Shown here: positions 1,280-24,203 of the stretch, in pieces
Layout of the letters: each line of letters begins with the position of its first letter
Numbering within the stretch: the stretch's first letter is position 1
IMG/VR virus record: IMGVR_UViG_3300002933_000469
Coordinates: 1 to 24,901 of that record
Origin: a virus
Length of the DNA stretch: 24,901 bases
Direction: 5' to 3' (one strand)
Made by a program: the position numbers and the translations under genes
Notes under the pieces: model-generated
Database searches by the model: none
Seen by the model: only the letters and a program-made list of their open reading frames with translations
What the model was told of the DNA's origin: nothing

Positions 1280-1320
1280 AAAAAATAAATTTAATTTAAT
1301 CATTCACAAAGGAGATCATG

Positions 1321-3248
<1,928 letters not shown>

Positions 3249-3268
3249 GTTAGTAAATGTAAAAGAAG

Positions 3269-3289
3269 AGCCCCTTAATTGGGGCTTTT
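3269..3289 (+). terminator. Intrinsic terminator after groEL
   Basis: AGCCCC (3269-3274), loop TTAATT, GGGGCT (3281-3286), then a T-rich run. The stem is six base pairs and G/C-rich in an otherwise A/T-rich gap. It closes the groESL unit about 20 bases after the groEL stop. Confidence 0.88.
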
Positions 3290-3297
3290 CCTTTTAT

Positions 3298-3305
3298 GAT
3301 AAATA
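3298..3305 (+). promoter_or_regulatory. Candidate T4-like late promoter (GATAAATA)
   Basis: GATAAATA lies between the groEL terminator and the small gene at 3328, with no sigma70 -35 element upstream. It is the same octamer as at 1226 and 18463. The predicted start of transcription would lie about six bases after the box, leaving a short leader with the ribosome site AAAGGA at 3316-3321. Confidence 0.55.
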
Positions 3306-3327
3306 CTTTATAGATAAAGGAAATATC

Positions 3328-3558
3328 ATGACAGTCACAGTACAACAAGTATATAACTATAACCATACACCGGAACAATCTGCGCCGTTTAGTTACAAAC
3401 TCGCAGAAATGAAAGAACTTGGAACATTTGTTGAAACAAACTTCCCCGAAGGTGAACCTGGCCCAATTCTTACATTTACCACAGAGGAAGCGGCTAATGA
3501 ATATGTTGCATTTATGAGTAACTTAAATCCAGTAAGTACCACTATTACTCCGGCATAA
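3328..3558 (+). CDS. Small protein of unknown function, probably late-expressed
   Basis: A 76-residue protein beginning MTVTVQQVYNYNHTPEQ. I do not recognise a family. It is soluble, mildly acidic and has no cysteines or membrane segment. The middle (about residues 45-65) reads like an amphipathic helix, TFTTEEAANEYVAFM. It is a one-gene unit between two terminators, with a late-type octamer 22 bases upstream and a good ribosome site. That arrangement suggests independent late expression, for example as a small virion or assembly protein. The function is not shown by the sequence. Confidence 0.7.
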   Translation: MTVTVQQVYNYNHTPEQSAPFSYKLAEMKELGTFVETNFPEGEPGPILTFTTEEAANEYVAFMSNLNPVSTTITPA

Positions 3559-3580
3559 GTTAGCACACACTAACATAATA

Positions 3581-3602
3581 AACCCGCTAAGGCGGGTTTT
3601 TT
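3581..3602 (+). terminator. Intrinsic terminator after the 76-residue gene
   Basis: AACCCGC (3581-3587), loop TAAG, GCGGGTT (3592-3598), followed by an uninterrupted T run to 3602. It is a strong hairpin of seven pairs. The next promoter begins two bases downstream. Confidence 0.92.
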
Positions 3603-3603
3603 G

Positions 3604-3632
3604 TTGACTAAAAATACCCAAAATAGTATAAT
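3604..3632 (+). promoter_or_regulatory. Sigma70-type promoter P0 of the repeated phage family, giving a near-leaderless mRNA
   Basis: TTGACT (3604-3609), a 17-base spacer, and TATAAT (3627-3632). The spacer contains ACCCAAAAT, matching the TTCCCAAAAT core of the promoters at 5522-6118; 12 of 17 spacer positions agree with the one at 6096-6112. Only nine bases separate the -10 box from the ATG at 3642. Transcription should therefore begin at or within about three bases of the start codon. No ribosome site is present. Confidence 0.8.
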
Positions 3633-3641
3633 AGAAGTATT

Positions 3642-3965
3642 ATGAAAATTGTAAAGCTATCTAATAGACACAAAGCCCATAAAAAGTGGGGATTTGCCAT
3701 TGGCTTACGTTTTACTGAGTATGGCAATGATGCTCGCCAAGTATGTGAGTATCTGGAAAACGCATACAAGACCTATAGTTTCCAAAAGCCAGACTGGCGT
3801 TGGTCAAATGCCAAGATTGAATGGTATGCGGACTTTGGTAATCGCCCAGCTCGATCAATTCATATTATGAATGACTATCGTCCACGTCCATATTGGATTT
3901 ATTTGAAAAATGATGCAGACGTTAGTATGCTTATATTAACTGGGCTACTAGATGAAAATCGTTAA
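3642..3965 (+). CDS. Small protein of a tandem family, copy 1
   Basis: A 107-residue basic, tryptophan- and tyrosine-rich protein starting MKIVKLSNRHKAHKKWGFAI. I know no family for it. It shares an MKI(V/I)KL start, an early basic/aromatic stretch and a C-terminal helix-like segment (VSMLILTGLLDE) with the next genes, so they are best read as divergent paralogues. The ATG lies just downstream of the P0 -10 box, so the mRNA is probably leaderless. The last 14 bases overlap the next gene, including the shared sequence GATGAAAAT. It is probably an early accessory protein. The function is unknown. Confidence 0.75.
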   Translation: MKIVKLSNRHKAHKKWGFAIGLRFTEYGNDARQVCEYLENAYKTYSFQKPDWRWSNAKIEWYADFGNRPARSIHIMNDYRPRPYWIYLKNDADVSMLILTGLLDENR

Positions 3966-4242
3966 ATTAGATCGTCGCTATACACAATGCCGTCTAAACA
4001 ACTACTGGATAGCCTTGCACTTTGATGAGGAATACGATAGTAAGCCTAACTGGGGTCAGCCATTTTGGATAAAGCGTAAACTAGTAGACCATTATGGCCC
4101 GGGTGGCTATGCTGTGTGTAATAATCCTAGTCCGTGGTATAATGAATATGTTGGTAACTATTTAGAAATAATATATCTAAGAGACGAGTCAATGTTGACC
4201 TTCTTAGAGTTGAGTGGAGCATTTTTTGATGAAAATAATTAA
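3952..4242 (+). CDS. Small protein of a tandem family, copy 2
   Basis: A 96-residue protein starting MKIVKLDRRYTQCRLNNYW. It aligns with copies 1 and 3 at the start (MKIxKL, then R-rich and aromatic residues) and at the end (DESMLTFLELSGAF). The ATG lies 14 bases inside copy 1, and the same 14-base overlap recurs with copy 3. This suggests the unit was duplicated together with its overlap junction and is translated by coupling. Rich in W, Y, G and P, no membrane segment, no cysteine motif. The function is not recognised. Confidence 0.75.
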   Translation: MKIVKLDRRYTQCRLNNYWIALHFDEEYDSKPNWGQPFWIKRKLVDHYGPGGYAVCNNPSPWYNEYVGNYLEIIYLRDESMLTFLELSGAFFDENN

Positions 4243-4513
4243 ACTAGATGGTAGATACGCAGGTTTCCCTAAGTGGAAATATGCCTTAGACTTTGGTAAG
4301 CACAAGTACGGCAAGCTACCTAGACTAAAATATGCTGTGGGATTTAAAAAGTTATTCGGCCCAGACCGTTGGCACAATCCTGACCCTACTGTACGAGTGT
4401 TTGACCGTAACTGGTATTTGTTTAACGAAAACTGGTATAACGACATCAAACACGGCCGTATCTTGTATAACAATGAATCGGACTTGAGTGCAGTACTACT
4501 CATGTTAGAATAA
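4229..4513 (+). CDS. Small protein of a tandem family, copy 3
   Basis: 94 residues from the ATG at 4229, giving MKIIKLDGRYAGFPKWKYAL. An in-frame GTG at 4214 would add five residues, but the ATG start restores the family start MKIxKL and the same 14-base overlap as between copies 1 and 2. Many lysines and aromatics. The C-terminus SDLSAVLLMLE corresponds to the C-terminal segment of the sister proteins. The stop is followed by the next ATG after one base (TAATATG). The function is unknown. Confidence 0.72.
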   Translation: MKIIKLDGRYAGFPKWKYALDFGKHKYGKLPRLKYAVGFKKLFGPDRWHNPDPTVRVFDRNWYLFNENWYNDIKHGRILYNNESDLSAVLLMLE

Positions 4514-4514
4514 T

Positions 4515-4787
4515 ATGACAACTATTAAAATACCACGTCAACCACAGCGTAATGGAATTAGGCTTAAAGAAGTAATTCCATTCCTTAAGGAAACACTTGG
4601 CGAATTTGAAGGACGCATGTATGCTGGCCCCGGCTGGCGGTTCCAAATTAAGGATTGGAAGAATATTGGATGTGGCCGAAAACTTGTCCCTAGTATGATC
4701 TACGGTGGCGATACTGAACCTGCACACTACTTGTTGGATGTACTAGATCCCGAAATGGCGTTGCTTATTAGTTTAAAGTTTGCTTGA
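4515..4787 (+). CDS. Small protein, probable divergent fourth member of the tandem family
   Basis: A 90-residue protein starting MTTIKIPRQPQRNGIRLKEV. It is basic and ends PEMALLISLKFA, comparable to the C-terminal hydrophobic segment of the three preceding proteins. Membership in the family is suggestive rather than certain. It starts one base after the stop of copy 3 at a TAATATG junction without its own ribosome site. Its TGA stop (4785-4787) lies within the -35 hexamer of the next promoter. No known domain. Confidence 0.68.
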   Translation: MTTIKIPRQPQRNGIRLKEVIPFLKETLGEFEGRMYAGPGWRFQIKDWKNIGCGRKLVPSMIYGGDTEPAHYLLDVLDPEMALLISLKFA

Positions 4788-4812
4788 CCAATAATTCCCA
4801 ATATTGTATAAT
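4784..4812 (+). promoter_or_regulatory. Repeated sigma70-type promoter P1
   Basis: TTGACC (4784-4789), a 17-base spacer containing AATTCCCAATATTG, and TATAAT (4807-4812). The TGA stop of the upstream gene is inside the -35 hexamer. A second TTGTAT copy begins 11 bases after the first. The leader carries AAAGGA at 4826-4831 before the ATG at 4837. Confidence 0.9.
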
Positions 4813-4836
4813 GGTTGTATTAATTAAAGGACATAA

Positions 4837-5307
4837 ATGCTCTACTTCGCTTATGGTATGAATACTAACCGGGCCCAAATGGCCGACCGTTGTCCGATGG
4901 CCAAAAGCCTCGGACGGGCAGTATTAATGAACCATGAATTTCGATTTGCCCGTCACGCAGATATAATCGTAAATCCCGAATATAATACCCAAGGAGTATT
5001 ATGGGATATTACTCCAGAATGTGAAAAGAATCTAGATGCATTAGAAGGGTTTCCTAATTATTATCTAAAGAAAACAGTTAGGGTATTACATAATAATAAG
5101 GCCGTAGAATGTATGACTTATTATATGGCTGGAGAGAATATAGATGAAATGCCGTCGGATGGGTATTTAGAAATGTTATTCGAAGGTTATAAAGCACATA
5201 ATGTTGATGATTATCAAATATATGAAAGTTTAGCATTAATCGATAGTATTAAAGAGCGTCAGAAACAAATACAAAACAAATATTTTAACGAACAATATTG
5301 GGAATAA
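4837..5307 (+). CDS. Gamma-glutamylcyclotransferase-like (GGCT/AIG2 fold) protein
   Basis: A 156-residue protein. MLYFAYGMNTN at residues 1-11 is the substrate-loop signature of the GGCT-like fold (YGxN at 6-9). GVLWDIT then LDALEGFPNYY place the conserved catalytic Glu at residue 70. Family members release 5-oxoproline from gamma-glutamyl peptides or amines. The actual substrate here (glutathione-derived, gamma-glutamyl-polyamine or a protein) cannot be told. The length is normal for the fold. The C-terminal 30 residues are a charged helix. Visibly A/T-richer than groEL. Driven by promoter P1, with a small acidic gene one base downstream. The family assignment is firm. The physiological role is open. 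Confidence 0.82.
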   Translation: MLYFAYGMNTNRAQMADRCPMAKSLGRAVLMNHEFRFARHADIIVNPEYNTQGVLWDITPECEKNLDALEGFPNYYLKKTVRVLHNNKAVECMTYYMAGENIDEMPSDGYLEMLFEGYKAHNVDDYQIYESLALIDSIKERQKQIQNKYFNEQYWE

Positions 5308-8767: not shown

Positions 8768-9952
8768 ATGGCACAATTTACATATTCCCACGTTGAAGAC
8801 TACATTGAAATCATTGCCGGACATAGACATCCTGGCGGAAAAAGCAAACACAGTATATTCCAACTTCCCGAAAGTCCTATTAATTTAGCACGATACGATG
8901 TTAAAGTTATGGAAAGTTTTGCTGAGCAATGCCATAATGGAGTTGCATTTACAGATCGCCAGGCTAAGTTAGCTACAGATTTAGTTGTTAAATATGAGCG
9001 CCAATTATTTAAACTAGGTGTAGATATTACTCCAGTTAAAACAAACGCAGAATTTAGGATACCATTGCGCGAAATAGATCGTACTAGCCGAGTGTGGGTA
9101 GAAAATGACTCTATAAATTTGAAATTTCCATACTTAGCAGATATAATTGAAACAGTTAGAGCAGAATCAAAATCTAGTAAAGGCAAAATACAATGGCAAC
9201 ACGAAAAAAAATATTGGTCTGCTGATTTAACTGAACACAATGTAAATTGGGTTTATACATTTGCTCGTCAACACAACTTTGACATTGACTCTAGTCTTAC
9301 TAAAGCAATGGACTTGTTGCTAGACGCAGAAAAAGAACCATACGCAATCGAATTACGTGCCGATGCTGATGTATTAAGTATTACTAATGCACATGATACA
9401 TTAACAGAATATGTTAATGAACAATTAGGTGGACTTAGTACAGATAATTTACTCACATTAGTTGACAATGCTCCTATACTTGGATATACAGTTGATAAAG
9501 TTATTGAGGAAGTAGTTATTGACGCATACGGTACACGATTCTGGAGTTTATGTGCTAACAGAGAACTTAAAGTTGATACAACAACTAGTAGTAACTTAGT
9601 TAAAGATATTGCCGAGTATGCTTGCGCTACTAATAGATTTCCTATATATGTGTACGAACCTGATTTAAGTAATCGATTAAAAACAGAATTTAATAAATTC
9701 TTCCCGGGTGCAATGATGACTCTTGATAATAAAGTAATGGATAAAGGAATTACCGAAGATATTAAGGTCGTATATACTACCAAAATTCCACGTGCGGCCA
9801 TTGCACGTATACCGTTGATGGTTAGTAGTGCTGGTATGTTATTTGGCGGTGACCGCCAAATGTGGATTCAAACAGCAGAAAAGGTTGTATACTTTACTAA
9901 AGATGTGTACAATAAAAACTCCAAAGGACCAGACGTGTGCAAGCTAAACTAA
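8768..9952 (+). CDS. Protein adjacent to UvsW, possible HARP-like or helicase-accessory protein
   Basis: A 394-residue protein. Around residues 120-170 the pattern NLKFPYLADIIE, then KYWSADLTEHNVNWVYTF, then NFDID recalls the HARP-type N-terminal module of some SNF2-like helicases, where a conserved W and polar strand are followed by a helix. This is resemblance only. No Walker A is present. The C-terminal half has strand-like segments (FPIYVYEPD, IKVVYTTKIP) of unknown type. The mRNA is probably leaderless. The last 16 bases overlap the start of uvsW, and AAAGGA near its end serves uvsW. A role with UvsW in branch migration or template loading is inferred from overlap and possible domain likeness. 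Confidence 0.55.
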   Translation: MAQFTYSHVEDYIEIIAGHRHPGGKSKHSIFQLPESPINLARYDVKVMESFAEQCHNGVAFTDRQAKLATDLVVKYERQLFKLGVDITPVKTNAEFRIPLREIDRTSRVWVENDSINLKFPYLADIIETVRAESKSSKGKIQWQHEKKYWSADLTEHNVNWVYTFARQHNFDIDSSLTKAMDLLLDAEKEPYAIELRADADVLSITNAHDTLTEYVNEQLGGLSTDNLLTLVDNAPILGYTVDKVIEEVVIDAYGTRFWSLCANRELKVDTTTSSNLVKDIAEYACATNRFPIYVYEPDLSNRLKTEFNKFFPGAMMTLDNKVMDKGITEDIKVVYTTKIPRAAIARIPLMVSSAGMLFGGDRQMWIQTAEKVVYFTKDVYNKNSKGPDVCKLN

Positions 9953-11424
9953 TAATCAAAGACGAAGTTAATCTAAAAATTGAAGGACTTGAACTAGCAG
10001 ATAGAACTGCATTAGTTAAGAAATTTAAATACGAAGTACCAGGCGCTAGATATCAGCCCGCTGTCAGACTAGGCAGGTGGGATGGTAAGGTTGCGTTCTT
10101 CCAACTTGGTGGTAGCAGTTATATCAACTTGCTTGCAGATATACTTCCTATCTTAGAACAGCGCAACTATGATGTTGAGATTGAAGATTTACGTGACTAT
10201 AGAACTAGTTTTACATTTGATCAAGTAACTGAAGATACCTTTGCACATATACTGTGGCCAAAAGGACATCCGCAAGAAGGTAAGCCTATCGTTCTGCGTG
10301 ATTATCAAATACAGATTTTAAACAACTTCCTAGCTAATCCACAAAGCATACAAGAAGTGGCAACGGGCGCAGGCAAAACTATTATGACTGCGGCGTTAAG
10401 TAAAAGCATTGAAGCTTATGGTCGTAGTATTATTATTGTTCCAAACAAAAGCCTAGTAACACAAACAGAAGCAGACTATATTAACATGGGGCTTGATGTT
10501 GGCGTGTACTTTGGTGATCGTAAAGAGTGGGGCAAAACACACACTATCTGTACTTGGCAAAGTCTAAACGTATTGCTAAAAGCAACACAAGCAGGCACAG
10601 CAGAAGTAACTATTGGTGAGTTTATTGAAGATGTTGTCTGCGTTATGGTAGATGAAGTACACATGGCCAAAGCAGATGCATTAAAGACTTTACTCACAGG
10701 TGTGTTTGCCAAGGTACCTATTCGTTGGGGATTAACTGGGACTATTCCGCAAGAAGAATACGAACGTGTTAGTTTGTTATGCAGTCTTGGTCCAGTCATT
10801 GGTAAACTAACTGCCAGTGAACTTCAAGAAGCAGGCCACTTGGCTAATTGTCATGTAAATATAGTACAACTTCAGGATAGTGTAGAGTATACAGATTATC
10901 AAAGCGAATTAAAATACCTGGTAACAAATACAGCACGTCTAGCATTTTTGGCCAGATTAATTGATGGTATTAAAGAAGGTGGCAATACACTTATTCTTGT
11001 TGATCGAATTGAAACAGGCAAGCTATTACAAGTAGAACTAAGCACGTTGTTTAGTTTACTCAGTAGCAAGCCTGACGTAGTCTTTGTTAGCGGAGCAACT
11101 AAGTCCGCAGAAAGAAAAGAAGAATATGATGAAATTGCAACAAGTACTAATAAGATTATTATTGCTACCTATGGTGTTGCTGCTGTGGGCATTAATATCC
11201 CTAGGATTTTTAATCTTGTGCTTATTGAGCCCGGTAAGTCCTTTGTTAGAGTTATCCAGTCCATTGGGCGTGGGATCCGCAAAGCGGAAGACAAAGATTT
11301 TGTCCAAATCTGGGACATAACAAGTACCTGCAAGTTTGCTAAACGACACCTTACTAAGCGTAAGCAGTTTTATAAAGAAGCAAACTATCCATTTACAATA
11401 GAAAAAACACCATGGCAAAATTAG
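9937..11424 (+). CDS. uvsW: UvsW-like superfamily 2 helicase
   Basis: A 495-residue protein starting at GTG 9937, supported by AAAGGA at 9923-9928 and by the conserved N-terminal domain (residues 1-85, including GRWDGKVAFF), which in T4 UvsW binds DNA. Helicase motifs: I ATGAGKT (142-148), II DEVH (239-242), III GLTGTIP (265-271), and VI QSIGRGIRKAEDKD near residue 440. The family remodels branched DNA and R-loops and helps switch T4 replication from origin-dependent to recombination-dependent mode. Length matches T4 UvsW (about 500 residues). The gene is nested by 16 and 13 bases with its neighbours. No frameshift seen. Confidence 0.93.
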   Translation: MQAKLIIKDEVNLKIEGLELADRTALVKKFKYEVPGARYQPAVRLGRWDGKVAFFQLGGSSYINLLADILPILEQRNYDVEIEDLRDYRTSFTFDQVTEDTFAHILWPKGHPQEGKPIVLRDYQIQILNNFLANPQSIQEVATGAGKTIMTAALSKSIEAYGRSIIIVPNKSLVTQTEADYINMGLDVGVYFGDRKEWGKTHTICTWQSLNVLLKATQAGTAEVTIGEFIEDVVCVMVDEVHMAKADALKTLLTGVFAKVPIRWGLTGTIPQEEYERVSLLCSLGPVIGKLTASELQEAGHLANCHVNIVQLQDSVEYTDYQSELKYLVTNTARLAFLARLIDGIKEGGNTLILVDRIETGKLLQVELSTLFSLLSSKPDVVFVSGATKSAERKEEYDEIATSTNKIIIATYGVAAVGINIPRIFNLVLIEPGKSFVRVIQSIGRGIRKAEDKDFVQIWDITSTCKFAKRHLTKRKQFYKEANYPFTIEKTPWQN

Positions 11425-12194
11425 TAGTATGCGGAGATTCGAATGCGGCTGCAAGTGTACATACTCCGGGAAAACACTTCAGTGAATTGCTTGCTGACCA
11501 ATTAGACTATGAGTTAATTAGTTTGGCTCGCGGTGGCATGAGTAATGCTGGTATTTGTTTGCAAATTGAATATGCTATTAATAAGATCAATCCACGCCCA
11601 GATTTTATTTTTATATCATTAACTGATAGTTCACGCACAGAAATACCATACACCCCAACTAACTCTGCTTTTTTTGATAACAGTACAGATCTATGGAATA
11701 AACTGCGCCGCGGATATGACATTACTCGCGGATTGGAAAACGTAGTATATGACCATGATAATTATCTAAGTTCTAGAAACTCTTTCTTAAACAAAAACCC
11801 AACTATACGATCTGATAATGTAGGATCAATGACGTGGGAGGGATTTTATAAAGTGCCAGCGCAACAAAAGGTTGCAATGCAGTATTATATTACAGAATTG
11901 TTTGACATGAACTGGAAAGAACAGCTCGATATTTGGTGTATTAAAAATTGCCTCAGAGATTTAGTCGATTCCGGAATTCCATTTTTAGTTAGACAAGAAC
12001 ACTTTTTAAGAAATTGTGCTTGGTTGCCCGAGATTAATTGTATTGATAGTAATCTATTAAATTATGGCATCTATTCGCAAGCGAGCTTTAAAGATCCAGC
12101 ATTTGTAGACCCAGGATATCATACCAAAGAGGAACACCAAGTTGAAATAGCCAACTTATTGTATCCGTATATAGAAAAAATACTACAACAATGA
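11412..12194 (+). CDS. SGNH-hydrolase-like protein, copy 1
   Basis: A 260-residue protein. LVVCGDSN at residues 4-11 matches the GDS nucleophile block of SGNH/GDSL hydrolases (Ser10). ARGGMSN fits block II with Gly. FISLTDSSR stands where block III usually has GxND. VDPGYHTKEEHQ near the C-terminus fits the Asp/His block, with one extra residue between D and H. The family includes esterases and carbohydrate deacetylases. The start overlaps uvsW by 13 bases and the end overlaps the next gene by ATGA. No signal peptide. The substrate is unknown. Sister to the genes at 12191 and 16110. Confidence 0.68.
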   Translation: MAKLVVCGDSNAAASVHTPGKHFSELLADQLDYELISLARGGMSNAGICLQIEYAINKINPRPDFIFISLTDSSRTEIPYTPTNSAFFDNSTDLWNKLRRGYDITRGLENVVYDHDNYLSSRNSFLNKNPTIRSDNVGSMTWEGFYKVPAQQKVAMQYYITELFDMNWKEQLDIWCIKNCLRDLVDSGIPFLVRQEHFLRNCAWLPEINCIDSNLLNYGIYSQASFKDPAFVDPGYHTKEEHQVEIANLLYPYIEKILQQ

Positions 12195-12988
12195 ATAAAT
12201 TAATAGTGTGCGGATGTAGCTTTAGTGCACCAGCAAAAGATTTACCAGGTACTGCCTATGGAGAAGTATTAGCTAACAAGCTAGGATGGGAAGTAGAGAT
12301 ACTAGCTCGACAAGGATGCAGTAATGGTGGCATTCGTATACAGATAGATGAAGTATTACGTCAACGCCCTACGTTTGCTATTATTGCCCCTACATTCCAT
12401 GACCGTATGGAAATCCCTGCAAGTGCTGCACCATATGTACCACCGCCAGAAGAAAACAAAGGATGGAATTCGGATTTACAAAAACATTTACAACATAGTC
12501 ATTTAAATGGATACAGCAAAGATGTTGGCATAGACAATGTAAATTATGGCAACAATCCGTATCGTATGATCTGCGAAACTATTTTTAGTCTAGTGGAGAA
12601 TTATGATCATCCATATCGTAGTGCTAAAATAGATAAGAATACCCAGTTAGCAATGAAGCAATATGTTAACTTTTTGTATGATAGTGAATGGAAACGTCAA
12701 CAAGACGAATGGATAATTCGTGATGGTATTATGCAGTTATATTATGCCGATATCCCATTCTTACTAGTAGCAAATAACCTATGGAATAGCAATACCGTAC
12801 GTGCGGCAATACCTAATGTAGTTGATGACAAATATATGACCCTTGCCTATGAAGAAACTCCTGCTTATGCAACAAATACCTGGCCGTTTACCACAAAAAT
12901 AGATCCCGGTTATCATGGTGATCCTAAGAGCCAAGAGTATCTAGCAGATACGTATTACAATATTATTAAAAATACTTGGAAATTATAA
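12191..12988 (+). CDS. SGNH-hydrolase-like protein, copy 2
   Basis: A 265-residue protein parallel to its upstream neighbour along its whole length: LIVCGCSFSA (Ser10), ARQGCSNGGIRIQID, APTFHDRMEIP, and a closing IDPGYHGDPKSQEYLAD. The GDS of copy 1 is GCS here. The Ser, Gly and Asp/His blocks are retained, so hydrolase activity remains possible. Start by a 4-base ATGA overlap. The stop shares a base with the methyltransferase start (TAATG). Copies 1 and 2 are tandem duplicates that diverged strongly. No signal peptide, so action would be inside the host cell unless a virion protein carries it. Confidence 0.66.
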   Translation: MNKLIVCGCSFSAPAKDLPGTAYGEVLANKLGWEVEILARQGCSNGGIRIQIDEVLRQRPTFAIIAPTFHDRMEIPASAAPYVPPPEENKGWNSDLQKHLQHSHLNGYSKDVGIDNVNYGNNPYRMICETIFSLVENYDHPYRSAKIDKNTQLAMKQYVNFLYDSEWKRQQDEWIIRDGIMQLYYADIPFLLVANNLWNSNTVRAAIPNVVDDKYMTLAYEETPAYATNTWPFTTKIDPGYHGDPKSQEYLADTYYNIIKNTWKL

Positions 12989-13929
12989 TGACAAATAATG
13001 CAATAACAACAACAGAAGCAGAGTTTAATTGGTTTAGTAATAATGGTGTGTTTATGCCAATGATCAATGATACTGGACGTAATATATTTTATAAAGCTGC
13101 AATCGAAAGTGCTGTAAAAGATAAGGTAGTATGTGATATTGGCACAGGTACTGGATTTCTAAGTGTTCTGGCCGCAAAAGCAGGCGCTAAAAAAGTATAT
13201 GCAGTAGAAATGGATCCGGGTCGTGCCGAATTTGCCCGTAATGTAATTGCCAAGGTTGGACTCGGGGATGTCATTGAAGTTATCAATGATAATTTTTTAA
13301 ATACAGATATTTCTGCAGACATTTATGTAAGCGAAACTATTGGCACACAGATATTCAATGAAAACATTATTGCCATTGCTAATCACGCTATCAGAAATGG
13401 CGGAGTGTTTATTCCTAGTCAATTTGAAATTGTAGCTCGTGTATATAAAAATCATCCAATATTCCCCATGGTGCAATCGAATAGTGATGCATTTGAGTTT
13501 CAACCAGACATCGAAATTGATCCAGAGTTTGAAAATATTATCAATACTGGATTCCAACAACAACATGGATTAGATAATACATTATATCGTGCTAACTGTA
13601 TTCACAATTTATTTTCACAGTTACACAAGTTCGACGATCTACGTTTAACAACATTATACGAAACAGAACCTTTAATAGTAGACTTAAACAAACCCAACGA
13701 TATTAATAATATACGTATTACAATTCCAAATTCTGCCGTTGATACATCTACGCAAGATATATGTGTAGTATTATTTTGGAAAGCACGGTATCAAGATCTA
13801 ACTATGAATGTAACAGATACTATCTGGGGAAATCCTAGTAAAATTATTTTGCCTCGTTGCCGTAAAGTAGGGACTGATATTGTAACATGGTATGATCCTG
13901 CTATCAATGATTGGAGATTTAGTTTTTGA
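12988..13929 (+). CDS. Protein arginine methyltransferase-like SAM enzyme
   Basis: 313 residues from the ATG at 12988, which shares its A with the previous stop. An upstream in-frame TTG at 12976 is less likely. Residues 25-31 (MINDTGR) match the M-x-x-D-x-x-R SAM-cap helix of PRMTs. Motif I is VCDIGTGTGFLS (48-59). AVE at 72-74 holds the acidic ribose-binding residue. SETIGTQIFNE (115-125) places two Glu nine residues apart, as in the PRMT double-E hairpin that grips the arginine. A C-terminal beta-barrel-like half includes LFWKARY, at the place of the THW loop. The protein target is unknown. The PIG-L-like gene follows with a TTGA overlap. Other class I methyltransferases remain possible. 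Confidence 0.75.
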   Translation: MTNNAITTTEAEFNWFSNNGVFMPMINDTGRNIFYKAAIESAVKDKVVCDIGTGTGFLSVLAAKAGAKKVYAVEMDPGRAEFARNVIAKVGLGDVIEVINDNFLNTDISADIYVSETIGTQIFNENIIAIANHAIRNGGVFIPSQFEIVARVYKNHPIFPMVQSNSDAFEFQPDIEIDPEFENIINTGFQQQHGLDNTLYRANCIHNLFSQLHKFDDLRLTTLYETEPLIVDLNKPNDINNIRITIPNSAVDTSTQDICVVLFWKARYQDLTMNVTDTIWGNPSKIILPRCRKVGTDIVTWYDPAINDWRFSF

Positions 13930-14474
13930 GAGCAGTCGCATTAGTAGCTCACCCCGACGATTGTGTTATCTTTGCTTGGCCTTTTATTGAAGCACATCCT
14001 GAGTTTGAATGGGTAATTGTTTACTTGACCTATCGAGCATCGGACCCACGTGGGCAAGAACTAAAAGCATATTGGGATAAGCGTGGTATAGCGACAGTAT
14101 TCATGGGTTATATAGATGACTACACAGATCAGCAGACTGGAAAATTTAACTTTTGGGATCCGGGATTAGTAGGAGAACATACCGCAACAATGGTTCGTGC
14201 TATTAATACAGACTTAATACTAACACATTACAAGGATGGCGACTACGGTCATATACATCATATGTTTATGTACCAAATAGCAGATTCATTAGATATACCA
14301 AAGGTTTACTTTGCAAGTACTTTCAATTATAATATAGAGTATGCAGTTGTAGATTCAGTTGCCATAGAAGAATTGCCGTTACACCAAGAAGTCATTGAAG
14401 GATTCCAGGATCGCAACATTGGCAGATATATTGTAACACCGGAAGCGGAACTTATACTAAAAGAAAAACAATGA
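13926..14474 (+). CDS. PIG-L / LmbE-family deacetylase-like protein
   Basis: A 182-residue protein starting at TTG 13926, forced by the 4-base TTGA overlap with the previous stop and by the family N-terminus. ALVAHPDD (residues 5-12) is the zinc-site signature, supplying H9 and D12. GDYGHIHHMF (105-114) supplies H109/H112 as the third zinc ligand. The usual Glu after AHPDD is Cys13 here. Family enzymes remove N-acetyl groups from sugars, for example GlcNAc of lipids or mycothiol precursors. The length is slightly short (usual 200-250). The SGNH and PRMT-like genes are in the same translated chain. The substrate is unknown; a nucleotide sugar or glycan is the natural guess. Confidence 0.82.
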   Translation: MRAVALVAHPDDCVIFAWPFIEAHPEFEWVIVYLTYRASDPRGQELKAYWDKRGIATVFMGYIDDYTDQQTGKFNFWDPGLVGEHTATMVRAINTDLILTHYKDGDYGHIHHMFMYQIADSLDIPKVYFASTFNYNIEYAVVDSVAIEELPLHQEVIEGFQDRNIGRYIVTPEAELILKEKQ

Positions 14475-15650: not shown

Positions 15651-16113
15651 TCCCTTAGATATTAAAAACGAAATGGCACAGTTTGATCGTAAGAATAGAG
15701 ATTTTTACGATAGTCTTGATGAGCAAAATAAAAAGAAATTTGCTCCATTCTTGATGATTCGTTGGGGTAGTAGTGTAGGCGGTAGCGTAGACTTACAAGC
15801 ATACTATCTAATGAGTTGCAATGAAAACTTAAACAAGAACTTCTTTGAGATTAGCGCCTCCAAACATAAAAAGCTACAATGGCTATTAGCAACAACTGTA
15901 AGTCCAGGTATGGGCAATCAATATCATCAATGGATTACTCCGAAGAAAAAAGGCGCAGGCGATAATAAGGCTGTTAAGTTTCTTAAAGAGTTATATCCTG
16001 AATTAAAAGAAGATGAGATTAAACTATTAGCGCAGATTAACACTAAAGATGATCTTAAAACTCATGCCAAATCGATGGGCTGGGATGATAAGAAGATCAA
16101 AGAATTAACATGA
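15643..16113 (+). CDS. Probable clamp-loader small subunit (T4 gp62-like)
   Basis: A 156-residue, lysine-rich protein. The core DLQAYYLMSCNENLNKNFFE followed by KHKKLQWLLATTVSPGMG and QYHQWI resembles the helical pattern I recall for phage clamp-loader A subunits (gp62). The C-terminal part (LYPELKEDEIKLLAQINTKD) would be another helical domain. Gp62 with gp44 loads the sliding clamp at primer ends. Length fits (T4 gp62 is 187 residues). No gp44 gene lies in the window. Starts by an 8-base overlap (ATGAGTGA) and ends in ATGA with the next gene. The assignment is from remembered resemblance. Confidence 0.5.
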   Translation: MSDPLDIKNEMAQFDRKNRDFYDSLDEQNKKKFAPFLMIRWGSSVGGSVDLQAYYLMSCNENLNKNFFEISASKHKKLQWLLATTVSPGMGNQYHQWITPKKKGAGDNKAVKFLKELYPELKEDEIKLLAQINTKDDLKTHAKSMGWDDKKIKELT

Positions 16114-16850
16114 TTCAAAACCTAGTTGTCAATGGATGTAGTTACATGGAGGGCTACGCCGCCGGCCTTGGTCACAATGACCTGGCTACCCAATTGGGAA
16201 TCTCTCATGCAGAAAGTTTAGCAATTGGTGGTAGTGCTAACAGTAGAATAATTAGAACAACATTAAAGCACAGTTATCAAACTACAGAGCCTACTTTCTA
16301 TATTATGGGATTAACATTTGTTAGTCGGTTAGAACTTCCAATCATTGGAATGGGGCTAGAAGAAGAAAAAACATCGTTTGAAGGACGGTGGTGTAACCCA
16401 CAAAATCAGGAGTTTTCTGATCGTTACGATCACTTTTGGAATAGAGCAGAAAGTGAAAAATTTGTAAAACAAAAAATAATGGTAGAAGCATACAGTCTAA
16501 TAGATCGTACAGAAGATTTAATGTACCGCATACTTTCTACTATAGATAATTTACAAGCAAGAGGTCACCAAGTATTAGTTTATCAACAAGCAGATGACAG
16601 TTATCAATATTTACTAGGACGTGATAGATTACATCTATTTCGTAGTAGTGAGAATATCATTGATGGGTTCAACTGGGCTGCAATTAAATACCAACATGAG
16701 CAAGGTGTTCCATTCAATGAATCCACGGGCCATGGGAACTTTATCGGTCATCAAAATACTCCGGAACATTTACGGCATCGTGCTACAGGTGCCCACCAAG
16801 TTCTTAATGAATACCTTGTAAAATATATCAATGATCGAAACCTTATATAA
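16110..16850 (+). CDS. SGNH-hydrolase-like protein, copy 3 (degenerate)
   Basis: A 246-residue protein. NLVVNGCSYMEGYAAG places the presumed nucleophile at Ser11 in GCS, as in copy 2. SLAIGGSANSRIIRTT fits block II. FYIMGLTFVSRLELP parallels the LTDSSRTEIP region of copy 1. Near the C-terminus GHGNFIGHQN takes the place of the DPGYH block, so the catalytic Asp/His pair is unclear and the protein may be inactive or use other residues. It lies four kilobases from the other two copies in the same gene chain, between the clamp-loader-like and zinc-finger genes. Confidence 0.6.
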   Translation: MIQNLVVNGCSYMEGYAAGLGHNDLATQLGISHAESLAIGGSANSRIIRTTLKHSYQTTEPTFYIMGLTFVSRLELPIIGMGLEEEKTSFEGRWCNPQNQEFSDRYDHFWNRAESEKFVKQKIMVEAYSLIDRTEDLMYRILSTIDNLQARGHQVLVYQQADDSYQYLLGRDRLHLFRSSENIIDGFNWAAIKYQHEQGVPFNESTGHGNFIGHQNTPEHLRHRATGAHQVLNEYLVKYINDRNLI

Positions 16851-17523
16851 GTGTAAATATTGTGAAAAAGACTTCCGTAAAGAATCAAGTCTTGCGGTAC
16901 ATCTCTGCGAGCAAAAGCGCCGTTGGCAACAAGAAAAGGAAGTGCCGGTCCAACTTGGGCTTAAGGCATACTTACGTTTTTATGAAATTACGCAGGGAAG
17001 TGCAAAGTTAAAAAGTTATATTGACTTTGCAAAGTCGCCGTATTATAATGCCTTTGTTAAGTGGGGCAGACATATGGTAGCCATTAGGGGTATTAATCCC
17101 ACACAGTTCTTAGAATGGTTATTAAAGAATAATAAGAAGCTAGACTTCTGGTGTAAGGATGAGTTTTACGTTACTTACTTACACGAATACTTAAAACGTG
17201 AAGCAGTACAAGATGCACTAGAACGTGCTTTAAAGGAAATGCAGAATTATGCGGAAGATCATTTGGAACTTAGGAATGGGTTTAGCGACTATTTTAGGTA
17301 TGGTAACGGGAATCGTATTTGTTATCATATCAGCACTGGCAGGATTAGTCCTTGGGTTGTATATAACTGCGACAGTGGAGTTGCCTTTTTGGATTCGCTC
17401 GGTGAAGAACAAGTTGAAATGATTATTCCTTGGATTGACCCCGAACACTGGCAACGCAAATTTAAAGATTACCTAGCCGATACTGAATGGGTTAAAGAAA
17501 TATTATCGAAAGCAGGATTATGA
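16831..17523 (+). CDS. Zinc-finger-containing phage protein
   Basis: A 230-residue protein. The N-terminus has a C2H2-like finger, YKCKYCEKDFRKESSLAVHL: C8, C11 and H24, with C26 the likely fourth ligand in place of the usual second His. After that the protein is helical and aromatic-rich, with KWGRHMVAIRGINPTQFLEW and the closing IPWIDPEHWQRKF. I recall long homologues in T4-like phages of aquatic bacteria next to the DnaE-like gene that also follows here. No function is known. DNA binding is inferred from the finger. It overlaps its upstream neighbour by 20 bases and the next gene by ATGA. Confidence 0.72.
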   Translation: MIETLYKCKYCEKDFRKESSLAVHLCEQKRRWQQEKEVPVQLGLKAYLRFYEITQGSAKLKSYIDFAKSPYYNAFVKWGRHMVAIRGINPTQFLEWLLKNNKKLDFWCKDEFYVTYLHEYLKREAVQDALERALKEMQNYAEDHLELRNGFSDYFRYGNGNRICYHISTGRISPWVVYNCDSGVAFLDSLGEEQVEMIIPWIDPEHWQRKFKDYLADTEWVKEILSKAGL

Positions 17524-18110
17524 AATTTAAATCGGATATTGACATTGATTTCGCAGACCGTACAAAGGCATTAGCATTACTTAAACATAATCCTGCAAGT
17601 ATCAATCGCGACGGTAATTGGGTTCCGCACAATACAGGGGTATATGTAACTGATGTACCAATTGATCCATTTACTGGTCGTGCCAGCATCGATCATAAGG
17701 TAGCAGAAGATCGCGGTTATATGAAATTGGACTTTTTGAATGTATCATTATATACTCAGATAAAAAGTGAGCAACATTTACAAGAACTTATTGCACAAGA
17801 ACCAGAATGGGATCGACTATATGATCCAGAATTTTGTAGTCGGTTAATACATATTGGTAATCACTACGAAACACTTATTAAGATGCCAGAAGCAGTTAAT
17901 AGTATACCTCGCATGGCGATGTTACTTGCAGTAATAAGACCTGCGAAGAGGCACTTAATAGGCGAAACCTGGGCAAATGTAGCTAAAACCGTATGGGAAA
18001 AGCCCCAAGATGATGGGTATTTCTTTAAACGTAGCCATTCTGTGGCCTATGCACACCTAGTGGTGGTTAATATGAATTTGTTAACTAACTCTACGAACGA
18101 GAGTAATTGA
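17520..18110 (+). CDS. Miniature DnaE-palm-like protein (C-family polymerase resemblance)
   Basis: A 196-residue protein. SDIDIDFADR (5-14) resembles the PDxDxDF segment of bacterial DnaE with its two catalytic Asp (here D8 and D10). HNTGVYVTDVP (37-47) resembles the DnaE HAGVHAGGV segment. YMKLDFLNVSLY (67-78) matches VKFDFLGL, which carries the third catalytic Asp (D71). FKRSHSVAYA (169-178) matches FxKSHSxAYA. The order is as in DnaE, but DnaE is about 1,160 residues and this protein lacks PHP, fingers and most of the rest. Synthesis of DNA is therefore doubtful. An accessory or decoy role is a guess. The 3' end overlaps the minus-strand gene by 30 bases. Confidence 0.6.
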   Translation: MKFKSDIDIDFADRTKALALLKHNPASINRDGNWVPHNTGVYVTDVPIDPFTGRASIDHKVAEDRGYMKLDFLNVSLYTQIKSEQHLQELIAQEPEWDRLYDPEFCSRLIHIGNHYETLIKMPEAVNSIPRMAMLLAVIRPAKRHLIGETWANVAKTVWEKPQDDGYFFKRSHSVAYAHLVVVNMNLLTNSTNESN

Positions 18111-18455
18111 TTTACGTTTACTACGCTTGGTAGCCATTTCTTTTAAGCTCACGTAAGGGCCCATTTTAATTTCTACATCCTTACTATTCATAGTACGTAG
18201 ACACGTTTTAAAAATGCCCCAATCTTGCTTTAAAAACACATTAATAGGCATAAGTCTATTACTTTCCCACCACCATGTTTCCCCTAAAATTAAGAATACC
18301 TTCTTAATTTCTGCGTCTTTGAGACTGCCAAAATCATAAAGTGTTGTTATAACTTCGTCAAAGTTTTGAATGATGCCGATGTAATCGTTGCCGCCATAGG
18401 TAATATAGCTAATGAATGGGTACTGACTTAAGAGTTGCTTGTAGTGATCTTCCAC
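18081..18455 (-). CDS. Conserved-looking minus-strand phage protein
   Basis: A 124-residue protein starting at GTG 18455 on the minus strand. Cohesive aromatic sequence (QYPFISYITYGGNDYIGIIQ), then LGETWWWESNRLMPINVFLK, and a basic end KEMATKRSKRKSITLVRR. I recall a family with the WWWESNR and NKRSKRR-type ends in T4-like phages. No function is known. It is the only convincing minus-strand gene in the window. It converges on the DnaE-like gene (30-base tail overlap) and is divergent from the virion gene at 18491. The protein composition and the absence of a competing plus-strand frame support it as real. Confidence 0.78.
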   Translation of the reverse strand: MEDHYKQLLSQYPFISYITYGGNDYIGIIQNFDEVITTLYDFGSLKDAEIKKVFLILGETWWWESNRLMPINVFLKQDWGIFKTCLRTMNSKDVEIKMGPYVSLKEMATKRSKRKSITLVRRVS

Positions 18456-20844: not shown

Positions 20845-21876
20845 ATGTTGAACTCTATCCGCGACGCCGTTACACAAATATTACCAGGAAAACGTAAAAC
20901 TAACTCTACTTCGGGTTGGATAAGTTTCAATGCACCCTGCTGTCATCATAACGGCGAATCAGCCGATACCAGATCACGTGGCGGTATGGTAATGAACCCA
21001 GACGGCGGCGTTAGTTATCATTGTTTTAACTGCAACTTCAAAGCAAGTTATGTTCCGGGTCGTCATTTAACATATAAATTCCGTAAGTTATTAAGTTGGA
21101 TGGGAGCAGATGATGGCACAGTCAAACGATTAGTTATTGATGCTATCCGTATCCAGGACTTAGTAGCACCAGAACAACTAGCAGAAGTAGTAGAACAAGA
21201 AGAAATTAAGTTTAAAGCGCGGCCTCTACCTAAAGATGCAAGCGACTTGGCGGAGCTTGGTCTAATGTATAAGCTCACAGACTATGTAGATATGCCAATG
21301 GAGTATGTGGCAGCAGTGGTATATGTCAATGATAGAAAAATTGATTTAAATAAATATCATTTCTACTGGACCCTTGATACATTACATAGCATGAACAAGC
21401 GTATAATTATTCCATTTACTTGGAAGAATCGAATTATTGGTTATACAGCAAGAACATTCGTTGAGGATGTAACGCCCAAGTATTATAACAGTCACGAAGG
21501 CAACTACGTATTCAACGTAGACAAACAATTAAAAGATGCTAAGTTTGTTATTGTAGTTGAAGGGCCATTTGATGCTATGGCAGTAGATGGTGTTGCTATT
21601 CTAGGCAATGAGTGCAGCGAAATACAAGCAGATATTATTGATAGCTTAGGACGTGAAGTTATTGTTGTACCCGATGCAGATCGAGCAGGCGCCAACTTGG
21701 TAGACAAGGCAATCGAATATGGGTGGAGTGTTAGCTTTCCTATATGGCAAGAAGAACACAAAGACGTTGCAAGCGCAGTAGAAGCATATGGTAAACTATT
21801 TGTTATTAAAAGTATTATAGATGCAAAACAATCAAATAAATTAAAAATTGAGTTAAGAAAAAAGAAATTAGTATGA
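20845..21876 (+). CDS. DNA primase (T4 gp61-like, TOPRIM)
   Basis: A 343-residue protein. The N-terminal zinc-binding domain has PCCHH (31-35) and HCFNC (59-63). Residues about 230-300 form a TOPRIM core: VIVVEGPFDA, with the metal-binding Glu at 238, and VVPDADRAG with D276 and D278. The T4 family makes pentaribonucleotide primers and works with the gp41 helicase, whose gene lies just downstream after one inserted gene. Length matches gp61 (342). The mRNA is probably leaderless. The stop overlaps the inserted gene by ATGA. Confidence 0.9.
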   Translation: MLNSIRDAVTQILPGKRKTNSTSGWISFNAPCCHHNGESADTRSRGGMVMNPDGGVSYHCFNCNFKASYVPGRHLTYKFRKLLSWMGADDGTVKRLVIDAIRIQDLVAPEQLAEVVEQEEIKFKARPLPKDASDLAELGLMYKLTDYVDMPMEYVAAVVYVNDRKIDLNKYHFYWTLDTLHSMNKRIIIPFTWKNRIIGYTARTFVEDVTPKYYNSHEGNYVFNVDKQLKDAKFVIVVEGPFDAMAVDGVAILGNECSEIQADIIDSLGREVIVVPDADRAGANLVDKAIEYGWSVSFPIWQEEHKDVASAVEAYGKLFVIKSIIDAKQSNKLKIELRKKKLV

Positions 21877-22763: not shown

Positions 22764-24203
22764 ATGGCAACTGAATACACACCAGAATTACAAAAATTGT
22801 TTTTAGAAATGATGATTCAAGACGCACAAAGTTTTGTGAGAATACAAAATATTTACAATCCAGAGAACTTTGATCGCAGTTTAAGAGAAGCTGCTAAATT
22901 TATTGCTAGCCACTCGGCTGAGTATAAAACACTTCCCACAGTAGAACAAATTAAAGCACTAACAGGAGTAGAACTTAGACCGATTCCCGATACTGTTGAA
23001 GGTCATCAAGAGTGGTTTATGAAAGAATTTGAGGGATTCTCACGTAAAGAAGAACTTAGTCGTGCTATTCTTAAAGCAGCAGATCTATTAGAAGAAGGCG
23101 ACTACGATCCTGTAGAAAAGTTAATTAAAGATGCAGTACAGATCAGTTTAACTAAAGACTTAGGTACAGATTACTTTGCTGATCCACATGCACGTATTGA
23201 CAAGTATTTTAATAGTGGTGGACAAGTAAGTACAGGGTGGCCACAAATGGATAAGATCTTATATGGCGGATTTAGTCGTGGCGAACTTAACATTTTTGCT
23301 GGCGGTTCAGGTTCGGGTAAGAGCTTGGTTATGATGAATATTGCATTAAGTTGGTTGCAAGCAGGACTAAGTGGTGTATATATTAGTTTAGAACTCAGTG
23401 AAGAACTAGTCGCACTAAGAACAGATGCTATGTTAACTAGCATGGGCACAAAAGACATTCGTAAGGATATTGATACTACAGAACTTAAAGTTAAGATGGT
23501 GGGTAAGAAGTCTGGCAAGTATCGTATTAAAGCATTACCGGCACAAAGTAACGTAAATGATATTCGTAGTTTCATTAAAGAGTATCAAATACAAACAAAC
23601 AACAAAGTAGACTTTGTCATGTGCGATTATCTAGACTTAGTAATGCCGGTATCGGTTAAAGTAAATCCAAATGATCAGTTTATTAAAGACAAATATGTAG
23701 CAGAAGAATTGCGTAACTTATCACAAGAGCTAGGCGTGTTGTTTGTAACAGCGTCGCAGTTAAATCGTAGTGCAGTTGAAGAAATTGAATTTGACCATAG
23801 TCATATTGCAGGTGGTATCTCTAAGATTAATACAGCAGATAACGTATTTGGTATCTTTACAAGTCGTGCCATGAAAGAACGTGGCAAATATCAAATTCAA
23901 TGTATGAAGTCACGTAGTTCAACTGGCGTAGGGCAAAAGATTGACTTAGAATATAACATTGAAACTATGCGTATTACTGACCCAGGCGAAGAAGTGGGTA
24001 GTGCCGGAGGCAATGGTTATAAGCCATCTGCAAGTATTATGAATCAAATTAAGACTACATCTACTATTAATCAAACAACTGGATTACCTGTAGCTAAAGA
24101 AGGGTGGAAATTAGATGAAAACACAGCACCGCCGCCAGGCAGTAGTGTAGAAAGCACTAAATTAAAGTCAATGCTCGCTGGCCTAAAAGCCAAGTCTGAA
24201 TAA
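22764..24203 (+). CDS. Replicative DNA helicase (T4 gp41 / DnaB-like)
   Basis: A 479-residue protein. Residues 1-130 form a helical N-terminal domain. The RecA-like core carries Walker A GGSGSGKS (180-187), the motif YISLELSEE (207-214), Walker B VDFVMCDYLDL with D288, and TASQLNRSA further on. The family forms hexamers that unwind the replication fork and recruit primase. Length fits gp41 (475). No inteins or frameshifts. The C-terminus is a low-complexity tail (PPPGSSVESTKLKSM). A TATAAT just before the ATG looks like chance (no -35). Confidence 0.92.
   Translation: MATEYTPELQKLFLEMMIQDAQSFVRIQNIYNPENFDRSLREAAKFIASHSAEYKTLPTVEQIKALTGVELRPIPDTVEGHQEWFMKEFEGFSRKEELSRAILKAADLLEEGDYDPVEKLIKDAVQISLTKDLGTDYFADPHARIDKYFNSGGQVSTGWPQMDKILYGGFSRGELNIFAGGSGSGKSLVMMNIALSWLQAGLSGVYISLELSEELVALRTDAMLTSMGTKDIRKDIDTTELKVKMVGKKSGKYRIKALPAQSNVNDIRSFIKEYQIQTNNKVDFVMCDYLDLVMPVSVKVNPNDQFIKDKYVAEELRNLSQELGVLFVTASQLNRSAVEEIEFDHSHIAGGISKINTADNVFGIFTSRAMKERGKYQIQCMKSRSSTGVGQKIDLEYNIETMRITDPGEEVGSAGGNGYKPSASIMNQIKTTSTINQTTGLPVAKEGWKLDENTAPPPGSSVESTKLKSMLAGLKAKSE

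What the first reader, a model, noticed from the sequence alone, without database searches (positions are those of the whole stretch)
17520..18110. Miniature protein carrying the three catalytic-Asp segments of the DnaE polymerase palm
In 196 residues the protein keeps, in DnaE order, segments like PDxDxDF (D8, D10), HAGVHAGGV, VKFDFLGL (D71) and KSHSxAYA, yet it has none of the PHP, fingers or clamp-binding parts. T4-like phages normally use a B-family polymerase. This may be a stripped-down nucleotidyltransferase, a regulator that occupies host clamp/polymerase complexes, or an ancestral-type palm. I recall similar phage proteins but no published role.
Basis: partly seen in the sequence, partly recalled or inferred. 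Interest (0 to 1): 0.72.

Follow-up and report, generated by a model that had tools for sequence, protein, structure and literature searches.

The report
One half of a split DNA polymerase
The gene encodes one of two small proteins that together match the catalytic core of the bacterial DNA copying enzyme DnaE, found in large phages that also carry their own main polymerase; this split enzyme was predicted in print in 2021 but, as far as I found, nobody has tested what it does.

Summary
The 196-aa ORF (17520-18110, +) is DnaE-like along its whole length: profile-profile 97%, E 6e-11; AlphaFold2 pLDDT 95, and the 14 best PDB folds are all Pol III alpha. Two details need correcting. The catalytic Asp equivalents of E. 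coli D401/D403/D555 are D6, D8 and D71, not D8/D10/D71 (D10 = D405). The fingers are not entirely absent: the O-helix with the steric-gate His (H760 = H173) remains.

It is not a complete miniature palm but the C-terminal half of a two-gene enzyme. Related large phages carry the other half (about 175 aa, with the GRGS dNTP-binding motif) at a distant locus. The halves meet at E. coli residue ~393/400, a uniform seam. 21 of 22 records of at least 200 kb have both halves; all 16 tested have a family-B polymerase; none has PHP or HHH domains. Key residues are invariant in 151 sequences. The C-half lies between uvsW and primase/helicase, the N-half upstream of the clamp loader, so a replisome-linked accessory polymerase is most likely.

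Iyer et al. 2021 (PMC7824862) already described this split minimal Pol III alpha; the window gene is a new member. No activity has been shown.

The parts
17520..18110 (+). C-terminal half of a split minimal DNA polymerase III alpha (phrog_11778), 196 aa
   Evidence: ORF; phrog_11778 E 9e-60; hhalign to DnaE profile 97.3%, E 5.9e-11; AF2 pLDDT 95.1, Foldseek PDB hits 1-14 all Pol III alpha
17535..17549 (+). Codons of D6-I7-D8-I9-D10 = E. coli D401/D403 (metal ligands) and D405
   Evidence: Invariant Asp in 151/151 sequences; numbering; roles from PMC3919608 and PMC8485763
17628..17642 (+). Codons of HNTGV (H37-V41), counterpart of DnaE HAGGV
   Evidence: H37 and G40 invariant 151/151; aligned by hhalign
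17724..17732 (+). Codons of K69-L70-D71 = E. coli K553-F554-D555
   Evidence: K69 and D71 invariant 151/151; hhalign register
17937..17948 (+). Codons of R140-P-A-K143, counterpart of the DnaE FRPGP finger segment
   Evidence: R140, P141, K143 invariant 151/151; PF17657 partial hits on this gene in relatives
18024..18053 (+). Codons of F169-A178 (FKRSHSVAYA), O-helix with H173 = E. coli steric-gate H760
   Evidence: K170, H173, Y177 invariant 151/151; hhalign; steric gate in PMC8485763
16831..17523 (+). Upstream gene (phrog_11058, N-terminal zinc-finger-like), overlaps the start of the polymerase gene by 4 bp (ATGA)
   Evidence: found upstream in 139/143 eligible loci
18081..18455 (-). Convergent gene (phrog_11637), tail-to-tail overlap with the polymerase gene
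   Evidence: found in 135/138 eligible loci, always opposite strand
9937..11424 (+). UvsW-type helicase, part of the conserved replication/recombination cluster
   Evidence: Pfam ResIII/Helicase_C/UvsW_N; 45/45 eligible loci
20845..21876 (+). DNA primase (Toprim, DnaG-like)
   Evidence: 55/73 eligible loci
22764..24203 (+). DnaB/gp41-like replicative helicase
   Evidence: 38/40 eligible loci

Best explanation
The protein is the metal-binding C-terminal half of a minimal DnaE-type (C-family) DNA polymerase encoded as two proteins. The N-half brings the first palm elements and the GRGS motif that in the Pol beta fold holds the dNTP phosphates. This C-half brings the catalytic Asp residues D6, D8 and D71, K69, the HxxGV strand, a short finger remnant and the O-helix with the steric-gate His. 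The two assemble non-covalently into one palm with a shared active site. Because a family-B polymerase is always present and the Pol III processivity parts are missing, the assembled enzyme most likely acts as an accessory polymerase at the phage replisome, for example extending primers before hand-over to Pol B, or in recombination/repair synthesis. Shown here: homology, the seam, co-occurrence, invariant active-site residues, gene neighbourhoods. Inferred: assembly, catalysis, role.
For: Profile-profile match over the full length to DnaE (C-half 97.3%, E 5.9e-11; N-half 99.2%, E 1.4e-18, ending exactly at E. coli residue 393). The N-half ends 33 residues after GRGS in 65 of 84 cases, range 31-42; the C-half starts just before DxDxD; no fused ORF among 173 C-half and 89 N-half frames. 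AF2 pLDDT 95.1 and 91.6; leading PDB folds of both halves are only Pol III alpha/PolC (first 14 and first 12 hits). Both halves in 21 of 22 records of at least 200 kb. Pol B in 16/16, PHP and HHH_6 in 0/16. Fifteen C-half residues invariant in 151 sequences, including all metal ligands and the steric-gate His. C-half sits in an SSB-uvsX-uvsY-DnaQ-like exonuclease-uvsW-...-primase-helicase cluster; the N-half lies upstream of a clamp loader on the same strand in 40/60 eligible loci.
Against: No biochemical data. The two halves were not folded together (no complex prediction available). Fold superposition is partial: TM-score over the query 0.33-0.49, Foldseek E 1.6e-3 at best. Most of the fingers is missing (25 residues against 113 between RPG and KSHS), so template/dNTP handling would be unusual. 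The window's own record is a 35.5 kb fragment without the N-half, so pairing in this phage is inferred from relatives. One 222 kb record has the C-half without a detected N-half (possibly incomplete).
Confidence: 0.75

Rival explanations
1. The C-half works alone as a minimal metal-dependent nucleotidyltransferase or nuclease, with the N-half unrelated to its function.
For: All metal-ligand Asp residues and K69 are in this one chain and invariant; AF2 predicts a compact confident fold without the partner.
Against: The GS motif of the same fold is missing and exists as a near-perfectly complementary, co-occurring gene ending where this one begins. The steric-gate O-helix is kept, which points to dNTP selection rather than nuclease action.
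Confidence: 0.1
2. The pair is a catalytically dead or mainly structural/regulatory relic, for example a decoy or adaptor that occupies host or phage clamp/polymerase complexes.
For: A family-B replicase is always present, so a second polymerase is not obviously needed; most of the fingers and the PHP and HHH parts of DnaE are lost.
Against: Metal ligands, Lys, steric-gate His and N-half GRGS are invariant in 151 and 82 diverse sequences; relics usually lose catalytic residues first. No clamp-binding region remains to support a decoy.
Confidence: 0.12
3. It is a fragment of a full-length DnaE that is broken or spliced (degraded gene, frameshift, trans-splicing intein).
For: Split DnaE with inteins is known in cyanobacteria (cited in PMC3919608).
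Against: The same two complete small ORFs recur in about 150 sequences with uniform ends and no fused form; PHP and HHH_6 domains are absent from whole genomes.
Confidence: 0.03

Closest known systems
Split minimal DNA polymerase III alpha of group 2.2 jumbo phages (Iyer et al. 2021, PMC7824862)
   [quoted passage not shown] Iyer et al. name Atu_ph07 as one of group 2.2, and it is among the relatives tested here.
   Different: This is a new environmental member. Added here: exact seam, steric-gate and D405 retention, invariance across 151 sequences, clamp-loader neighbourhood of the N-half, convergent overlapping neighbour.
Bacterial DnaE (Pol III alpha), e.g. E. coli DnaE
   Same: Order and identity of catalytic motifs; D401/D403/D405/D555, K553, H760 equivalents kept.
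   Different: Split in two; no PHP, HHH or other C-terminal domain; large internal deletions (between DxDxD and HAGGV, and in the fingers).
phrog_11778 and phrog_11127 (PHROGs 'DNA polymerase')
   Same: phrog_11778 is this C-half family (E 9e-60); phrog_11127 is the N-half.
   Different: The PHROGs labels do not state that the two are halves of one enzyme.
PolC (Gram-positive Pol III alpha)
   Same: C-family palm; PolC structures are among N-half fold hits.
   Different: PolC has Asn in place of D405 (PMC3919608); the phage protein keeps Asp (D10), as DnaE does.

Membership tests
C-family DNA polymerase (Pol III alpha), catalytic core | Three metal-ligand Asp residues (E. coli D401, D403, D555) | tested here: met
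   D6, D8, D71 invariant in 151/151
C-family DNA polymerase (Pol III alpha), catalytic core | GS motif (GRGS) in the same palm | tested here: inconclusive
   Absent from this protein; present in the separate N-half gene; joint palm not shown
C-family DNA polymerase (Pol III alpha), catalytic core | Same fold as Pol III alpha palm/fingers | tested here: met
   Foldseek PDB hits 1-14 all Pol III alpha, though best E is 1.6e-3 and TMq 0.33-0.49
C-family DNA polymerase (Pol III alpha), catalytic core | Steric-gate His in the O-helix (H760) | tested here: met
   H173 invariant 151/151
C-family DNA polymerase (Pol III alpha), catalytic core | Template-directed DNA synthesis | not testable with these tools
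   Needs purified proteins
Full-length DnaE architecture | PHP, full fingers and HHH domains | tested here: not met
   PHP and HHH_6 absent from all 16 related genomes; only a finger remnant
Split minimal Pol III alpha of jumbo phages (Iyer 2021) | Stand-alone C-terminal part starting at DxDxD | tested here: met
Split minimal Pol III alpha of jumbo phages (Iyer 2021) | Distant gene for the N-terminal part in the same genome | tested here: met
   In relatives: 21 of 22 records of at least 200 kb; not seen in the window's own 35.5 kb fragment
Split minimal Pol III alpha of jumbo phages (Iyer 2021) | Family-B polymerase in the same genome | tested here: met
   16/16 related genomes; own fragment not testable

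The most novel reading that the evidence does not exclude
Two separately encoded half-palms of 170-200 residues assemble non-covalently into the smallest working C-family DNA polymerase, acting beside Pol B and the phage clamp loader as a primer-extending or repair polymerase, either as a reduced DnaE or as a survivor of an ancestral two-piece form.
Probability: 0.5. Interest if true: 0.75.

Novelty: new member of a known kind. Interest (0 to 1): 0.42.

Why it matters
If the two halves reconstitute a polymerase, it would be a C-family enzyme reduced to about 370 residues and cut through its active site, a simple system for asking what the fingers, PHP and thumb parts of bacterial replicases add. 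It would also show that large phages run a bacterial-type and an archaeal/eukaryotic-type polymerase together. The sequence constraints and precise seam found here make a clean two-protein reconstitution test possible.

Tried and rejected
Pfam and PDB sequence searches with the single protein gave nothing, and a 40-row profile against PDB gave only chance hits. hhalign against the single E. coli sequence gave only weak probability (13-16%), although in the right register; a 16-sequence DnaE profile was needed. Searched for fused N+C genes: none. Searched for leftover DnaE domains (PHP, HHH_6) elsewhere in the genomes: none. A regex count of clamp loaders was too strict and was replaced by an HMM count. 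The genome scan with DnaE returned only gammaproteobacteria, so phage DnaE proteins were added for diversity. Not attempted: a tree to decide reduced versus ancestral (too little alignable sequence) and coevolution between halves (too few paired genomes).

Full report
OBSERVATION. The ORF 17520-18110 (+) encodes 196 aa. Its motifs follow DnaE order: SDIDIDF, HNTGV, MKLDFLNV, RPAK, FKRSHSVAYA. None of 200,000 shuffles of the protein contained the motif string. Alone it hits no Pfam family but is a clear member of phrog_11778 'DNA polymerase' (E 9e-60), with weak KSHS-region hits to large phage DnaE families. Against E. coli DnaE (L177), PDFDVDF is 400-406, so D6 = D401, D8 = D403, D10 = D405, K69 = K553, D71 = D555 and H173 = H760. 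D401, D403 and D555 are the magnesium ligands, and D405 is conserved in all DnaE but Asn in PolC (PMC3919608). H760 is the modelled steric gate (PMC8485763).

FAMILY. tblastn finds 90 phage records, among them 121Q and other Asteriusvirus, RaK2, GAP32, CBB, PA5oct, Atu_ph07, Phosso and Vibrio phage 2.275.O. In 151 distinct sequences D6, D8, D10, H37, G40, K69, D71, W97, R140, P141, K143, K170, H173, Y177 and N186 never vary.

THE OTHER HALF. A DNA_pol3_alpha (PF07733) search of seven cultured relatives found in each a second, distant gene matching only positions ~20-96. These are ORFs of about 170-200 aa ending ...GVGRGSSVASY..LIG.H..DS..Y.LD..EFLK and then a stop. In 65 of 84 the end lies 33 residues after GRGS, range 31-42. 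The profile aligns to DnaE (99.2%, E 1.4e-18) and ends exactly at E. coli residue 393, seven residues before PDFDVDF at 400; the C-half begins a few residues before its DxDxD and its profile matches the rest of the core (97.3%, E 5.9e-11). These E-values are for single pairwise comparisons, and the automatic alignment misplaces the first ten residues of the C-half because of the deletion behind them; the DxDxD correspondence rests on motif identity and order. No fused frame was seen. The N-half is phrog_11127.

CO-OCCURRENCE. Both halves are present in seven of seven cultured phages, in the 354 kb record G001, the long record closest to the window, in eight of eight N-half records of 200 kb or more and in five of six further C-half records of 200 kb or more: 21 of 22 records. 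The single miss, G035, is 222 kb and may be incomplete. Shorter fragments often show one half only, as expected for distant loci. All 16 genomes tested carry a family-B polymerase; none has PHP or HHH_6. DNA_pol3_finger gives only sub-threshold matches, and in all 12 genomes with any such match one falls on the C-half gene, which shows that a finger remnant is kept.

STRUCTURE. AF2 of the C-half with 45 sequences: mean pLDDT 95.1. Foldseek against PDB: ranks 1-14 are all Pol III alpha-type structures, best E 1.6e-3, probability up to 1.00, TM over query 0.33-0.49; against BFVD, the named leading hits are phage DnaE-type polymerases. AF2 of an N-half: pLDDT 91.6; PDB ranks 1-12 are all Pol III alpha or PolC. 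Superpositions are partial because of large deletions: 103 to 24 residues between DxDxD and HAGGV, and 113 to 25 between RPG and KSHS (from motif positions). The complex was not modelled.

NEIGHBOURHOOD. In cultured relatives the C-half lies in SSB-uvsX-uvsY-DnaQ-like exonuclease-uvsW-...-C-half-...-primase-helicase. Among eligible loci uvsW is found in 45/45, helicase in 38/40, primase in 55/73, the upstream phrog_11058 gene in 139/143 and a convergent phrog_11637 gene in 135/138, usually overlapping tail to tail by 4-47 bp. The N-half is followed by a small gene (76/89 loci), a GroES-like gene (83/89 loci; Cpn10, phrog_931/3188) and a clamp loader (phrog_168) on the same strand in 40/60 loci with room. 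Both halves therefore sit in replication contexts.

MECHANISM. In C-family polymerases the GS motif positions the incoming dNTP and the three Asp residues hold two metals (established for Pol beta-fold polymerases). Here these are on two chains, so neither half should be active alone and both should be active together (inference). The kept O-helix with the His gate suggests dNTP use. With Pol B present and no Pol III processivity parts, an accessory role in primer extension or repair is the likeliest (inference; Iyer et al. suggest cooperation with Pol B in synthesis of one strand or repair).

KNOWN? Yes. Iyer et al. [quoted passage not shown] Earlier papers noted a truncated alpha (CBB_328, 172 aa, PMC5259590) and alpha plus epsilon in Atu_ph07 (PMC6102473). 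No later experimental paper was found, within the held library only. New here are the exact seam, the residue mapping including steric gate and D405, invariance in 151 sequences, the co-occurrence count, the clamp-loader neighbourhood and the convergent partner gene. Whether the form is ancestral, as Iyer et al. suggest, or reduced is not decided by these data; D405 retention fits a DnaE-type origin.

Noticed in passing
window 18081-18455 (-): Convergent gene of unknown function (phrog_11637) overlapping the polymerase gene tail to tail; this arrangement is kept in 135 of 138 eligible loci.
   Followed up: partly
window 16831-17523 (+): Zinc-finger-like protein (phrog_11058) directly upstream with ATGA overlap, kept in 139 of 143 loci; a candidate partner of the polymerase.
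   Followed up: partly
L123 about 3001-5006; L102 4073-4717: The N-half gene is followed by a GroES-like gene and a gp44/RFC-type clamp loader on the same strand in many IMG/VR phages.
   Followed up: partly
window 1318-3248 (+): The phage fragment appears to carry its own groES and groEL genes (by eye from the translations).
   Followed up: no
window 11412-12194, 12191-12988, 16110-16850 (+): Three proteins with a shared N-terminal pattern (LVVCGDSNAA / LIVCGCSFSA / LVVNGCSYME), which look SGNH/GDSL-hydrolase-like by eye; the two that were searched gave no Pfam or PHROG match.
   Followed up: partly
window 3642-3965, 3952-4242, 4214-4513 (+): Three small adjacent ORFs containing MKIVKL/MKIIKL starts look like tandem paralogues.
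   Followed up: no
window 12976-13929 and 13926-14474 (+): A methyltransferase that looks arginine-methyltransferase-like by eye, overlapping a PIG-L deacetylase gene (PF02585, E 4e-9).
   Followed up: no
MF403008.1 212336-213688 and NC_071039.1 217618-221395: The family-B polymerase matches fall in two open frames in Atu_ph07 and PA5oct; in the PA5oct relative MIJ3 this was reported as an intein split (PMC6892783).
   Followed up: no
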